The notes below the pieces were generated by a model. That model saw only the letters and a list, made by a program, of their open reading frames with translations. It had not been told where the DNA came from and did no database searches. The position numbers and the translations under genes were made by a program. Below, piece after piece: positions 20,071-37,550 of a stretch of 43,568 nucleotides of DNA. The stretch's first letter is position 1; each line of letters starts with the position of its first letter. This stretch comes from an archaeon GW2011_AR19 (GTDB lineage: Archaea > Nanobdellota > Nanobdellia > Pacearchaeales > GW2011-AR1), in the NCBI GenBank assembly GCA_000806015.1, contig JWKY01000001.1, positions 1 through 43,568 of the forward strand. Reading direction: 5' to 3'.

Positions 20071-20703
20071 ATGGCGGAACTAAAGGAACAATTAAAACAA
20101 GCTCTAACAGAATTAAGAGCAGAAAAGGAAAGAAAATTTGACCAGACTGTTGATTTAATTGTAAATTTGCAAAAGTTTGATGTAAAGAAAAATCCAGTCA
20201 ACACTTTTGTTTCTGTTCCGTATAAAATTAAAGAGAAAAAAATTGCAGGATTCTTGGAAGTGAAAAATAAAAATTTTGACACAATTACTCTGGACCAATT
20301 CAAAAAATACACAGATAAAAAAGAATTAAAAAAAATTGCAAAAAATTATGACTTTTTTATTGCCCAGCCAAGCACCATGCCGAAGGTTGCGACTACTTTT
20401 GGAAGAGTTTTGGGTCCTTTGGGAAAAATGCCATCCCCCCAATTAGGAATTATTTTAAATACCGATGATAAAACAATAAACGAGTTAAAAGAAAAAATAA
20501 ATTCCAGCATAAAAATAAGAACAAAAGATGCTAGCATTAAAGTTCCTATTGGAAAACAAAGCATGGAAGATGAAAAAATTATTGAAAATGTTTTGGCTGT
20601 TTACAATTCTCTTTTAAAAAATCTGTCAAAAGGAAAGGAAAATATAAAAAATATTGAGATTAAATTCACAATGACTAAACCTAAGAAAATTATTTTAAAA
20701 TGA
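20071..20703 (+). CDS. rpl1: Ribosomal protein L1
   Basis: MAELKEQLKQAL...FGRVLGPLGKMPSPQLG; start moved from 20047. Confidence 0.95.
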   Translation: MAELKEQLKQALTELRAEKERKFDQTVDLIVNLQKFDVKKNPVNTFVSVPYKIKEKKIAGFLEVKNKNFDTITLDQFKKYTDKKELKKIAKNYDFFIAQPSTMPKVATTFGRVLGPLGKMPSPQLGIILNTDDKTINELKEKINSSIKIRTKDASIKVPIGKQSMEDEKIIENVLAVYNSLLKNLSKGKENIKNIEIKFTMTKPKKIILK

Positions 20704-20837
20704 AACAGGAACAAAAAATAGGAAATTTTTTGACAAACTCGCCAAAGCGTTGTCGAGTTAAAGGAAAGGAAAATATAAAAAATATTGAGATTAAATTCAC
20801 AATGACTAAACCTAAAAAAATTATTTTAAAATGAAAC
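20629..20837 (+). repeat. 78-bp direct duplication of the rpl1 3' end/rplP0 start junction (copies 20629-20706 and 20760-20837, 1 mismatch, period 131)
   Basis: AAAGGAAAGGAAAATATAAAAAATATTGAG...TTTTAAAATGAAAC twice. Confidence 0.95.
20708..20763 (+). repeat. Element family 1, full-length copy A between rpl1 and rplP0
   Basis: GGAACAAAAAATAGGAAATTTTTTGACAAACTCGCCAAAGCGTTGTCGAGTTAAAG; 49/56 identical to reverse complement of 31471-31526. Confidence 0.85.
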
Positions 20838-21814
20838 GAGTATACCCTAAGGAAGGGCATAAACAAAAAATCCAAATTGCAGAAGAATTGCCTAAAAAAA
20901 TTTCAGAGATTAAAATAAAAACAGTCGAAGAACTTGAAAATTTAATTAAAAATAAAAGAACAATATTAATCTCGTCCATAAAAAATATTCCCGCGTCACA
21001 ACTTCAAGAGATTGTTAAAAAACTTAGAGGCAAGGCCATTGTTAAAGTTCCAAAGAAAAATTTGATTTTTAGGGTGTTAGACAATTCAAAACAATTGGAT
21101 AAAGAAATTGAAAAACTAAGAGGAAAAATAAATGAAAGTTTTGCGATTTTATTCTCTGACTTAGATAGTTTTGAACTTGCCGGCGAATTAGTTAGAAATC
21201 AAAGCCCTGCAAAAGCAAAAACAGGGCAGATTACAGACAAAGACCTTGAAATCCCCGAGGGACCTACTGAATTAATACCTGGTCCAGCAGTAAGTGAATT
21301 AAGCGCTTTAGGAATTAAAATCCAAATTGAAAAAGGAAAAATCACAATAAAAGAGCCGAAAATTATTGTTAAAAAGGGCGAAAAAATTTCTCAGGGCGCA
21401 GCAGAGATATTAAATAAATTAGATATCAAACCATTCAAAGTAGGATTTATTCCAATATGTTCTTTTGATACTAAAGAAAAAATATTTTATTCAGAAATAA
21501 AAATAGATAAAGAAGGAGCAATAGAACAGCTTAAAACAGCTTATTCAAGAGCTCTGCCATTTGCTGTAGAAATTGGATATTCAACAAAAGATACAATTAA
21601 ATTCTTAATTAGCAGAGCCGGGATGCATGAAAAAGCTCTGGAAAAATTATCATCATCAAATAACTCACGACCTCACTCGGTAATTGAAGAAAATAATTTG
21701 TCCTCCGTGAAATCGCTCTACTCACGACCTCACTCGGTAATTGAAGAAAATAATTTGTCCTCCGTGAAATCGCTCGCTCCCAACGAAAATAAATCTGACG
21801 GAGAGGAAAAATAA
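20831..21814 (+). CDS. rplP0: Ribosomal protein L10 (acidic P0)
   Basis: IKNIPASQLQEIVKKLRGKA, GPTELIPGPAVSELSALGIKIQIEKGKITI. Confidence 0.95.
   Translation: MKRVYPKEGHKQKIQIAEELPKKISEIKIKTVEELENLIKNKRTILISSIKNIPASQLQEIVKKLRGKAIVKVPKKNLIFRVLDNSKQLDKEIEKLRGKINESFAILFSDLDSFELAGELVRNQSPAKAKTGQITDKDLEIPEGPTELIPGPAVSELSALGIKIQIEKGKITIKEPKIIVKKGEKISQGAAEILNKLDIKPFKVGFIPICSFDTKEKIFYSEIKIDKEGAIEQLKTAYSRALPFAVEIGYSTKDTIKFLISRAGMHEKALEKLSSSNNSRPHSVIEENNLSSVKSLYSRPHSVIEENNLSSVKSLAPNENKSDGEEK
21664..21775 (+). repeat. 57-bp in-frame tandem duplication in the L10 tail (repeat family 2)
   Basis: CTCACGACCTCACTCGGTAATTGAAGAAAATAATTTGTCCTCCGTGAAATCGCTC twice; encodes SRPHSVIEENNLSSVKSL x2. Confidence 0.95.
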
Positions 21815-31213: not shown

Positions 31214-31909
31214 CTATTTAAAACTTTTTCCGCACCCGCATTCTTTTTGGGCATTTGGATTATTGAATTTAAAACCAGATTCATTTAAATTATCCACAAA
31301 ATCAATTTCAATCCCGTCTAACATTTCAATTCCGTTTTTAGCTACAGAAATGTCTATTCCCGATTTTTTAAAATTTAAATCTGATTTTATCGGCTTGTTT
31401 ATTATTTCAAGATTATAGACAAAACCAGAACAGCCTCCCGAAAGAACAGATATTCTTAAAATTCCGCTTTCTTTAAGTCGACCACGCTTAGGCGATTTTG
31501 TCAAAAAACTTCCCGTTTTTTGTTCCTTTTCTTTTTCCTGCTTCAAAAGATGTTTTATTTTTTCTATCGCTGTTCTTGTAAATTTTAATGAAAAGTTTTT
31601 TATATTTTTTGGTTCAGATTTTAAATTTTTTTCTAAGACTTCATTTATTTGTTTAACAAGCTTGTTTAAATCAGCTTCGGAATATCCGTGCCCTAAAACT
31701 CCCTGCTCTAATGTTTCAAAAGCAGACGCTCCGCATCCAACACAATGAATTCCAAAATCAATCATAATTTCTGAGAGCAATTGCGCTTTTTCTGGATTTT
31801 CTGCAAGAATTTCTGCAATGAGCATATTTTTGGTTATTTTTTGGGTTTGTGTTTGTTGAATTTGTTTTTTCATTTTATTATTTTTTAGCTTCTTTAAAAA
31901 ATTCTTCAA
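31214..31909 (-). CDS. DUF1858-like domain fused to HesB/IscA Fe-S assembly domain
   Basis: [57 protein letters not shown] ... CGCGKSF. Confidence 0.88.
31471..31526 (-). repeat. Element family 1, full-length copy B, in-frame inside the HesB domain
   Basis: GGAACAAAAAACGGGAAGTTTTTTGACAAAATCGCCTAAGCGTGGTCGACTTAAAG; encodes [18 protein letters not shown]. Confidence 0.85.
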
Positions 31910-35145: not shown

Positions 35146-35227
35146 TTTCAGGAGAAAAAATAAATGAAAGCAAAAATAGGAAATTTTTTCATGCATTCAT
35201 TTTTTCAGGAGAAAAAATAAATGAAAG
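35146..35227 (+). repeat. Element family 1, core copy flanked by 25-bp perfect direct duplications
   Basis: TTTCAGGAGAAAAAATAAATGAAAG at 35146-35170 and 35203-35227; insert CAAAAATAGGAAATTTTTTC... Confidence 0.85.
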
Positions 35228-35760
35228 ACGAAACTGCAATAGTGCTGGAATATTTACCCAATGGTTATCCATTAGAAAGAAAAACGATGCCCTTAGCCCA
35301 AGCTATAGGAGAGAATAATTTTACCCTTCTAGAACTAGTCCCCCGAAGAGGAATTACATTAGAACCGGGAGAAAATGTTTATATTGGTCAGGGAAAAAGA
35401 GACAAAATATATTATATCCTTGGAAAATTATCGCAAGAAAAATTAACTGAATCTGCAAAACAACAATTAGAAGAATTTATAAAGAAAGTTGTTGAAAAAA
35501 AAGAACAAGAATTTGTAGATTTTTTTAATAAGTCAGAAGCAATTAATAAAAGATTCCATCAAATAGAGCTGCTCCCGGGATTAGGAAAAAAACATATGCA
35601 AGAAATAATTAAACAAAGACAAGAAAGTCCTTTTAAATCATTTGAAGATTTAAAAAAAAGAGTTCCAAATTTGCCTGATCCCAAAAGAACAATTGAAAAA
35701 AGGATGTTTAAAGAATTAACACAACCAGAAAGACATAATCTTTTCATAAAAGAAAATTAA
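35221..35760 (+). CDS. DUF655 family archaeal protein
   Basis: AIVLEYLPNGYP...LLELVPRRGITLEPGENVYIGQGKRDKI...LPGLGKKHMQEII; L21e-RpoF-DUF655 order. Confidence 0.9.
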   Translation: MKDETAIVLEYLPNGYPLERKTMPLAQAIGENNFTLLELVPRRGITLEPGENVYIGQGKRDKIYYILGKLSQEKLTESAKQQLEEFIKKVVEKKEQEFVDFFNKSEAINKRFHQIELLPGLGKKHMQEIIKQRQESPFKSFEDLKKRVPNLPDPKRTIEKRMFKELTQPERHNLFIKEN

Positions 35761-36355: not shown

Positions 36356-36951
36356 AAAGAAAACATAAATTATATTCAAATCCAAAAAGGCCTTTTGATA
36401 AAAAAAGAATCGACGAGGAAAAAGAAATAAAAGAAGAATTTGGATTGAAAAATAAAAAAGAAATTTGGAAAGCAGAAGCAAAAGTTAAATTGATAAGAAA
36501 GAAAGCCAGAAATCTAATTAAAAGTTCTCCCGAACAAAAAAAGAGATTGTTTGATCAATTAAACAAAATTGGATTGAAAGCTGATTCGCTTACAGATGCT
36601 TTTGCTATAAATATAAAATCCTATTTAGAAAGAAGATTACAAACTGTTGTTTTTAAAAGAAGATTGGCCAATACGATAAAAGAAGCAAGACAAAAAATAG
36701 TTCATAAAAAAGTTTTAATAGATGGAAAAGTTATCAACAAACCCTCATATATTGTTCCCATTAAATTAGAAGATAAAATAACGCTCAAAGAAAAAACCGC
36801 TTCATCAAAAAGCGCTTCTGCAGAAGCTCCAAAGATGCAAACAGAAGCCGCTGAAGAAAAAACATACCCTAAGGAAGGGCATAAAGATACAAAACAGGAA
36901 ATTTTGCATAACGATACAAAACAGGAAATTTTGCATAAAGAAAATTCATGA
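36352..36951 (+). CDS. rps4: Ribosomal protein S4
   Basis: YLERRLQTVVFKRRLANTIKEARQKIVHKKVLIDGKVINKPSYIV. Confidence 0.95.
   Translation: MKRKHKLYSNPKRPFDKKRIDEEKEIKEEFGLKNKKEIWKAEAKVKLIRKKARNLIKSSPEQKKRLFDQLNKIGLKADSLTDAFAINIKSYLERRLQTVVFKRRLANTIKEARQKIVHKKVLIDGKVINKPSYIVPIKLEDKITLKEKTASSKSASAEAPKMQTEAAEEKTYPKEGHKDTKQEILHNDTKQEILHKENS
36886..36946 (+). repeat. 27-bp tandem duplication in the S4 C-terminus (element family 1 core)
   Basis: GATACAAAACAGGAAATTTTGCATAA at 36886 and 36913; second copy identical over 34 nt to 17221-17254. Confidence 0.9.
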
Positions 36952-37550
36952 AAAATAAAAAAACAAAAGAAAAAAGTCCGTCTTTACTAGACGCTGGAAA
37001 ACCAGATTCATCTTCCGAAAAGGGAATCGAAACTGAAAGGCTCAGAGCAAAAAGCTCAAACCTCGTTCACGATGGAACGCGAACGAAAGAAATTCAGCCC
37101 GAAAGTTTTGCAGCTCCAGATACGGAAGAAAAAGATCAGACTAAAAGTAAAACAGAAGAAGAAATAAAAAAAACTAGAGAGATAGAAGCCATCGTGCATA
37201 TTTATTCATCATATAATAACACGATTGCCCATGTTACAGATATGTCTGGCAGGACGATTACCAAAGTTTCTGGAGGAATGGTTACTAAACACAGCAGACT
37301 AAAAGCAAATCCAACTATTGCGATGTTTATTGCTAAAAGAATTTCTGAAAAGATGAAAGAAGAAAAAATTAAAAATTTATATATAAGAAATAGAGCAAAA
37401 ACCGGAAATCCTACTCCTGGACCAGGCGCAAATGCAATAGTAAAAAGTTTATCCAGAGAAGGATTCAGAATAATAAATATTCTTGATAATACAAGAATTC
37501 CAAGAGGCGGTCCAAAGAAAAAAGGAGGAAGAAGAGGAAGGAGACCTTAG
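36948..37550 (+). CDS. rps11: Ribosomal protein S11 with about 75-aa N-terminal extension
   Basis: EAIVHIYSSYNNTIAHVTDMSGRTITKVSGGM...TPGPGANAIVKSLSREGFRI. Confidence 0.95.
   Translation: MKNKKTKEKSPSLLDAGKPDSSSEKGIETERLRAKSSNLVHDGTRTKEIQPESFAAPDTEEKDQTKSKTEEEIKKTREIEAIVHIYSSYNNTIAHVTDMSGRTITKVSGGMVTKHSRLKANPTIAMFIAKRISEKMKEEKIKNLYIRNRAKTGNPTPGPGANAIVKSLSREGFRIINILDNTRIPRGGPKKKGGRRGRRP

What the first reader, a model, noticed from the sequence alone, without database searches (positions are those of the whole stretch)
20708..20763. Dispersed in-frame element shared between the rpl1/rplP0 junction and a HesB-domain gene 11 kb away
20708-20763 and the reverse complement of 31471-31526 match at 49 of 56 positions without gaps. 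Both are read in the same frame: EQKIGNFLTNSPKRCRVK vs [18 protein letters not shown]. The two genes are unrelated, so this is not gene homology. It resembles in concept the Rickettsia palindromic elements that insert in-frame into protein genes; I know of no archaeal counterpart but cannot check. This is the best candidate here for an undescribed system.
Basis: seen in the sequence. Interest (0 to 1): 0.9.

Follow-up and report, generated by a model that had tools for sequence, protein, structure and literature searches.

The report
Translated hopping hairpins in archaeal genes
A tiny DNA element of about 57 letters, folding into two hairpins, has copied itself into dozens of unrelated genes of a group of dwarf archaea (Pacearchaeota), usually in a way that keeps the host gene readable and adds a short peptide to the protein, even in DNA polymerases and ribosome-linked genes.

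Summary
In detail: 20708-20763 and the reverse complement of 31471-31526 match at 49/56. They are two copies of a dispersed family (62 covariance-model hits at E<=1 in the 678-kb genome, 34 at E<=0.01; 46 and 32 in two congeners). Each copy is a double hairpin of about 53 nt, supported by strong covariation. Insertion-free orthologs exist in both congeners for both window copies. Copies are flanked by target duplications of variable length (7-78 bp) that begin at RRAG, mostly AAAG, directly after the element. All 36 copies lying in long ORFs are in sense orientation. All seven internal filled/empty pairs differ by a multiple of 3 nt. Hosts include SufB, an Obg-like GTPase, PolB, PolC-DP2 and a DEAD helicase. 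The second hairpin is shared patchily across one Pacearchaeota family. No Y1/RAYT transposase or reverse transcriptase was found in the carrier genomes tested. It is not an RPE, and coding palindromes were already reported in an archaeon (Methanocaldococcus jannaschii). I file it as a new family, a new variant of a known kind. Preferred copying mechanism: template switching with re-entry at RRAG; an RNA-templated (SINE-like) route is not excluded.

The parts
20629..20706 (+). left copy of the target duplication (rpl1 tail + stop + first bases of rplP0), 78 bp
   Evidence: 77/78 identity with the right copy; single copy in G001 and G002
20707..20759 (+). element copy 1, core (53 nt, type C)
   Evidence: CM hit E 7.5e-15; absent from both congeners
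20712..20732 (+). hairpin 1 of copy 1 (stem 20712-20719 / 20725-20732, loop AGGAA)
20736..20759 (+). hairpin 2 of copy 1 (stem 20736-20745 / 20750-20759)
   Evidence: covariation across genera
20760..20837 (+). right copy of the target duplication, begins with AAAG
20700..20834 (+). 44-codon ORF created by the insertion (MKQEQKIGNFLTNSPKRCRVK...)
   Evidence: sequence, coordinates counted by hand; not shown to be expressed
31475..31527 (-). element copy 2, core, in frame inside the HesB/SufA-like (Fe-S_biosyn) gene 31214-31909
   Evidence: 57-nt insertion relative to G001 and G002; Pfam
31528..31534 (-). left 7-bp direct repeat AAAGAAA of copy 2
   Evidence: low-complexity site; the duplication could be read differently
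31468..31474 (-). right 7-bp direct repeat AAAGAAA of copy 2
35166..35227 (+). third, diverged copy (type D; ATGAAAG at both ends) at the start codon of the DUF655-like gene 35221-35760 (gene name from memory)
   Evidence: CM E 1.6e-5; start codon occurs once in G001
20842..20870 (+). small YPKEGHK hairpin unit, extra N-terminal codons of rplP0, absent from G001
36864..36932 (+). YPKEGHK unit followed by two 27-nt CAAAACAGGAAATTTTG hairpins in frame at the end of rps4

Best explanation
This is a non-autonomous mobile element of Pacearchaeota: a ~53-nt double hairpin ((G)GAAC-hairpin 1-hairpin 2-TT) that copies itself to new sites. The new copy joins the target immediately 5' of an RRAG motif (mostly AAAG) at its 3' end and at a variable point 7-78 nt further along at its 5' end, so the target between the two points is duplicated. 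SHOWN: mobility, boundaries, variable RRAG-anchored duplications, double-hairpin covariation, in-frame insertion. INFERRED: copying happens by template switching of a nascent DNA strand ending in ...CTTT. It anneals to the AAAG that follows an existing copy, copies the hairpins, and jumps back to the original template at a varying point. The carrier encodes no recognisable Y1 transposase or reverse transcriptase. Survivors are those that leave host genes usable: inserts of 3n length with the element's open frame in register (two subfamilies are open in different frames), or duplications that restore both flanking genes. The encoded peptide (e.g. EQKTGNFLTNSPKRGRVK) is most likely a tolerated surface or linker insertion with no function of its own.
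For: Copies. Structure: 8 pairs with two-sided changes in 11 copies, 0/500 shuffles; hairpin 2 across 26 sequences from many genera: 97.6% of cells paired, 6 of 8 pairs with two-sided changes. Empty sites for both window copies in two congeners and for many others. Duplications of 78, 35, 22, 20, 19, 12, 9 and 7 bp, each starting AAAG, AGAG or GGAG right after the core; empty sites with a single copy for the 78-, 35-, 20- and 19-bp cases. Last four bases of 107 hits: AAAG in 71. Frame: 7/7 internal filled/empty loci differ by 3n nt; all 36 copies in ORFs >=150 aa are sense, though AAAG occurs on the antisense strand at 30% of sites. Essential hosts. Two copies in PolB of G001 and G002 but absent from seven other PolBs. 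No Y1 or RT.
Against: No intermediate or copying event was observed. The genomes are MAGs, two of the three being about 75% complete, so a missing enzyme could lie in the gaps. Duplications of 7-12 bp lie in A-rich sequence and some may be chance. Covariation could arise by template-switch 'correction' of quasipalindromes rather than by selection for a fold. ORF counts are conditioned on the ORF being open through the element, so out-of-frame insertions that destroyed a gene would be undercounted; the seven empty-site pairs do not suffer from this equally but are few.
Confidence: 0.5

Rival explanations
1. RNA-templated, SINE-like element: the target strand is nicked at RRAG, its CTTT 3' end primes reverse transcription of an element RNA ending in AAAG, and second-strand joining at a variable distance gives the variable duplication. 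RT activity would come from elsewhere, for example the partner cell or an unassembled gene.
For: Variable-length duplications of 7-78 bp with one fixed end directly after the element 3' end, and 0-4 extra bases at the 5' junction, are the footprint expected of target-primed reverse transcription. The 3' hairpin is the most conserved part. Copies run with transcription: of 53 intergenic copies 30 lie between two genes of their own direction and 5 against.
Against: No RVT_1 match at E<=1 in four carrier genomes, one of them 93% complete. No poly(A) tail or systematic 5' truncation seen. Orientation bias may follow the strand bias of AAAG plus selection.
Confidence: 0.2
2. Transposase-mobilised miniature element (REP, PATE or MITE-like): a Y1/HUH or other nuclease acting in trans recognises the two hairpins and the flanking AAAG.
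For: Two hairpins plus a conserved terminal tetranucleotide recall the ends of IS200/IS605 elements and REPs (general knowledge; PMC3733652). Some relatives with a few copies encode Y1 transposases: G016, G048, G050, G053.
Against: The richest carriers G000, G001, G002 and G034 have none. IS200/IS605 insertion makes no target duplication (general knowledge); here duplications vary up to 78 bp. No terminal inverted repeats.
Confidence: 0.25
3. The insert is removed after transcription (bulge-helix-bulge splicing) or skipped by the ribosome, so it never reaches the protein.
For: Strong hairpins; inserts lie inside conserved domains of essential proteins.
Against: Neither process needs 3n length or an open frame, yet all seven internal cases are 3n and nested inserts stay open. 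In type T copies the TGA of the second frame is changed with its stem partner, and that frame is the one used.
Confidence: 0.04
4. Chance similarity, shared linker or gene homology, or assembly artefact.
For: Both window copies encode K-rich peptides of similar sequence.
Against: Copies on most contigs, in three genomes of the genus and in independent MAG studies; also outside genes; clean empty sites.
Confidence: 0.01

Closest known systems
Rickettsia palindromic elements (RPE)
   Same: Short palindromic repeats that insert in frame into unrelated protein genes and are translated (PMC10969869).
   Different: RPEs are about 105-150 bp with long stem-loops and end in CGTC (PMC2229807, PMC3733652). 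Here the core is ~53 nt with two separate hairpins, duplications start at RRAG and vary in length, and the hosts are archaea.
MJRE palindromic repeats of Methanocaldococcus jannaschii (Suyama et al. 2005)
   Same: Archaeal palindromic repeats with coding potential, some fused into protein genes (cited in PMC2229807).
   Different: The paper is not held, so sequences were not compared. From memory most lie between genes, are older, and no filled/empty pairs were shown.
YPAL/RU-2 of Yersinia
   Same: Internal inverted repeats, no usual terminal motif, target duplications of varying size (3-26 bp), empty and filled sites known (PMC2229807).
   Different: 168 bp, mostly intergenic, bacterial; no RRAG anchor or double hairpin described in the passages read.
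REP/BIME sequences with RAYT transposases; IS200/IS605-derived PATEs
   Same: Tiny hairpin elements with a terminal tetranucleotide.
   Different: No GTAG tag, no Y1 transposase in the main carriers, target duplications present.
Mitochondrial double-hairpin elements (Allomyces, sponges)
   Same: Mobile elements made of tandem hairpins whose stems vary by complementary changes (PMC2800124).
   Different: Organellar, mainly intergenic; the Allomyces elements are reported to lack flanking duplications.
SINEs / target-primed retroelements
   Same: Variable-length duplications with one fixed end next to the element 3' end.
   Different: No reverse transcriptase, A-tail or polymerase III-type promoter found.

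Membership tests
Rickettsia palindromic elements | in-frame insertion into unrelated protein genes | tested here: met
Rickettsia palindromic elements | about 105-150 bp, one long stem-loop | tested here: not met
   53-nt core, two hairpins
Rickettsia palindromic elements | CGTC terminal tetranucleotide (PMC3733652) | tested here: not met
   3' ends are AAAG in 71/107 and variants; 5' end (G)GAAC or GAAAGC
REP with RAYT | GTAG tag beside the hairpin | tested here: not met
   copies listed
REP with RAYT; IS200/IS605 PATE | Y1 transposase in the genome | tested here: not met
   PF01797 absent from G000, G001, G002, G034; MAGs 75-93% complete
classical MITE | terminal inverted repeats and target duplication of fixed length | tested here: not met
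   no TIR; duplications 7-78 bp
YPAL-type element | target duplication of varying length | tested here: met
YPAL-type element | 168-bp Yersinia consensus | not tested
   length already differs
MJRE (M. jannaschii) | sequence and structure of the MJRE groups | not tested
   paper not held
SINE / TPRT element | variable target duplication adjoining the element 3' end | tested here: met
SINE / TPRT element | reverse transcriptase available | tested here: not met
   PF00078 absent from four carriers; supply by another cell not testable
Rfam RNA families | match to a curated family | tested here: not met
   only tRNAs and 5S rRNA in window, L086, L088

The most novel reading that the evidence does not exclude
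An archaeal SINE-like element: a 53-nt RNA of two hairpins is copied into DNA by priming at RRAG sites with enzymes supplied in trans (possibly by the partner cell), and has diversified into subfamilies open in different reading frames that decorate essential proteins, including the DNA polymerases that may copy it.
Probability: 0.15. Interest if true: 0.9.

Novelty: new variant of a known kind. Interest (0 to 1): 0.66.

Why it matters
Genes in these reduced genomes of dependent archaea are being lengthened by a minute element that keeps them readable, including replicative polymerases and iron-sulphur assembly genes. It is a natural series of tolerated peptide insertions, a source of lineage-specific protein extensions that annotation would otherwise read as odd domains. 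The variable RRAG-anchored duplications make the open question of how small palindromic repeats spread without a known transposase directly testable.

Tried and rejected
Gene homology or shared linker: rejected by copies outside genes and by empty sites. Assembly artefact: rejected by independent MAGs. IS200/IS605 or RAYT mobilisation: first favoured because of the hairpins and the tetranucleotide, weakened by absent Y1 genes and by long duplications. The idea that hairpin 2's outer arm is taken from the target: rejected, because in HesB and the L148 case the arm does not occur in the empty site. Viral origin: no match to the core pattern in viral contigs. A direct-repeat scan with slid controls was confounded by tandem arrays and by sub-repeats of the long duplications, so I relied on individually inspected cases with empty sites. 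The structure prediction of the HesB protein was poor (pLDDT 55, four sequences); it places the insert in a coil between a helix and a strand, which is only suggestive.

Full report
WHAT WAS CHECKED. The reported 56-nt match (20708-20763 against the reverse complement of 31471-31526) is present and is 49/56 identical without gaps. The window belongs to contig C1 of a 678-kb, 20-contig assembly that is 74.5% complete. A 76-nt query finds 15 places at E<1e-5 in that genome.

ANATOMY. Eleven full copies align over 57 columns. Each is two hairpins in tandem: CAAAAAA-C-AGGAA-A-TTTTTTG, then AACTCG-C-CCA-AGCG-TGG-T-CGAGTT, followed by AAAG. Eight of 17 pairs show changes on both sides that keep the pair, and 0 of 500 shuffles reach the observed score. 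Subfamilies differ mainly in the stems: type C (CAAAAAA..TTTTTTG), type T (TGAAAAAC..GTTTTTCA), type D (ATGAAAGCAAAAA..TTTTTTCATT), and several forms of hairpin 2. In relatives of other genera hairpin 1 is a quite different hairpin, while hairpin 2 keeps CGYCCAAGCGTGGYC with varying outer arms. Across 26 such sequences 97.6% of cells pair and six of eight pairs vary on both sides. This covariation proves that complementarity is maintained. It does not say whether by selection or by template-switch correction of imperfect palindromes.

DISTRIBUTION. The full model R1 finds 34, 46 and 32 copies (E<=0.01) in G000, G001 and G002 of one genus, 11 in G034, and few or none in about 90 other relatives. 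The hairpin-2 model R2 finds matches in 24 of 190 genomes, 23 of them in one family, with up to 26 copies in G095. An exact degenerate pattern of the core over 85,462 species genomes gave 30 stretches, 27 in Pacearchaeota, Nanoarchaeota or Woesearchaeota MAGs (one labelled only 'archaeon') from several studies, and three bacterial stretches that look like chance. Viral contigs gave none.

MOBILITY. The HesB insert is absent from the orthologs in G001 and G002, which are otherwise about 80-84% identical; the difference is exactly 57 nt. At the rpl1/rplP0 junction both congeners have a single rpl1 tail and no element. In the window the core is flanked by two 78-bp copies (77/78) of the rpl1 tail and rplP0 start. 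G034 has what looks like its own type-D insertion at the same start codon. Many other filled/empty pairs exist.

FOOTPRINT. The window example is not unique. Flanking direct repeats of 35 (perfect), 22 (perfect), 20 (perfect), 19 (17 identical), 12, 9 and 7 bp were found. The right copy always begins AAAG, AGAG or GGAG directly after the core; the left copy ends 0-4 nt before GGAAC. For the 78-, 35-, 20- and 19-bp cases a relative has a single copy of the repeat. Type D copies are flanked by ATGAAAG(C) or AATTAAAG, several at start codons. The fixed end is therefore the 3' end at RRAG and the variable end is the 5' end. This is the footprint expected of strand-switching copying or of target-primed reverse transcription, not of a transposase with fixed stagger.

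READING FRAME. Of 107 copies in the stretches read, 36 lie within ORFs of at least 150 aa beyond the element, all in sense orientation. AAAG occurs 7289 times on the sense and 3124 times on the antisense strand of long ORFs. If targets followed that ratio, no antisense copy among 36 would have a chance of about 0.7^36, or 3e-6, before selection is considered. Type C copies are used in the frame EQKTGNFLTNSPKRGRVK and type T copies in another (NEKQEVFQQTRPSVVEL). In type T the TGA that would stop this frame in type C is changed together with its stem partner. The seven internal filled/empty loci differ by 54, 57 or 72 nt. Nested inserts keep the frame too; the in-gene hits of 53, 56, 59, 71, 74, 77, 104 and 116 nt are all 2 modulo 3, as the 56-nt match of a 57-nt unit is. 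In G095 tandem arrays of 45-nt units are in frame in a 329-aa ORF.

HOSTS. Pfam identifies SufB, an Obg/YGR210-like GTPase, a group 1 glycosyltransferase, the Fe-S_biosyn protein, a methyltransferase, a class I tRNA synthetase (three copies), a DEAD helicase, an M50 peptidase, class II ribonucleotide reductase, L31e, S4-domain protein, PolC-DP2 (inside its central domain) and PolB. In PolB two copies are shared by G001 and G002 but absent from PolB of seven other genomes including G000, with the frame open throughout.

MODULARITY. Other small hairpins nest in the element. The YPKEGHK unit (TACCCTAAGGAAGGGCATAAA) sits in the AGGAA loop of hairpin 1 in many of 25 local occurrences, and inside its own loop in others. 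Inserts of about 45-60 nt sit in hairpin 2. Loops containing AGGA seem to be favoured sites; this was noticed, not tested statistically.

MACHINERY. PF01797 (Y1) is absent from G000, G001, G002 and G034, though present in some relatives with few copies. PF00078 (RT) is absent from all four. Completeness is 75-93%, so absence in all four is unlikely but not excluded. I therefore prefer host-driven template switching with re-entry by AAAG microhomology. I put about 0.4-0.5 on it, against 0.2 for an RNA route and 0.25 for an unseen nuclease. That the family is mobile and stays in frame I put at about 0.95.

RELATION TO KNOWN KINDS. Functionally it works like Rickettsia palindromic elements (PMC10969869). 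It fails their length and CGTC end (PMC3733652; PMC2229807). Coding palindromes in an archaeon were reported for M. jannaschii by Suyama et al. 2005 (cited in PMC2229807), and varying duplications of 3-26 bp are known for Yersinia YPAL. Double-hairpin mobile elements are known in mitochondria (PMC2800124). Searches of the open literature for DPANN or Pacearchaeota counterparts returned nothing relevant; subscription papers could not be searched. I therefore call it a new variant of a known kind.

Noticed in passing
window 21663-21776: Perfect 57-bp tandem duplication inside rplP0 (SRPHSVIEENNLSSVKSL twice). The unit resembles the 45-60-nt inserts found nested in hairpin 2 elsewhere, so it is probably another palindromic family.
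   Followed up: partly
window 36864-36951: C-terminal tail of rps4 is built from a YPKEGHK hairpin unit and two 27-nt CAAAACAGGAAATTTTG hairpin units, all in frame (TYPKEGHKDTKQEILHNDTKQEILH).
   Followed up: partly
window 35146-35227: 25-bp exact direct repeat spaced 57 nt around the type D copy at the start of the DUF655-like gene: partial tandem structure.
   Followed up: no
window 36948-37150: rps11 has an unusually long N-terminal extension (SPSLLDAGKPDSSSEKGIETERLRAKSS...) that may be built of inserted units.
   Followed up: no
L205 (G034 rpl1 locus): An apparently independent type D element at the ATGAAA start of rplP0 in another genus: same junction, different insertion.
   Followed up: partly
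L237 (G095:C220:2395-2512), L238: In-frame tandem arrays of 45-nt and 42-nt units of the hairpin-2 core (ESLPKRGQTKEIVAE repeated).
   Followed up: partly
A3 columns 7 and 18: The Y.Y mismatch in hairpin 2 tends to swap as C.U to U.C together, as if a specific mismatch were maintained.
   Followed up: no
L128:12184 and L086:13408 versus L152: G000 and G001 carry different element variants at the same ATGAAAGC start codon that is empty in G002.
   Followed up: partly
L134:4263, L135:13531, L130:15900: Some insertions sit right before GAGGTGA-like ribosome-binding sites (AAAG|GAGGTG), so they may change translation initiation.
   Followed up: no
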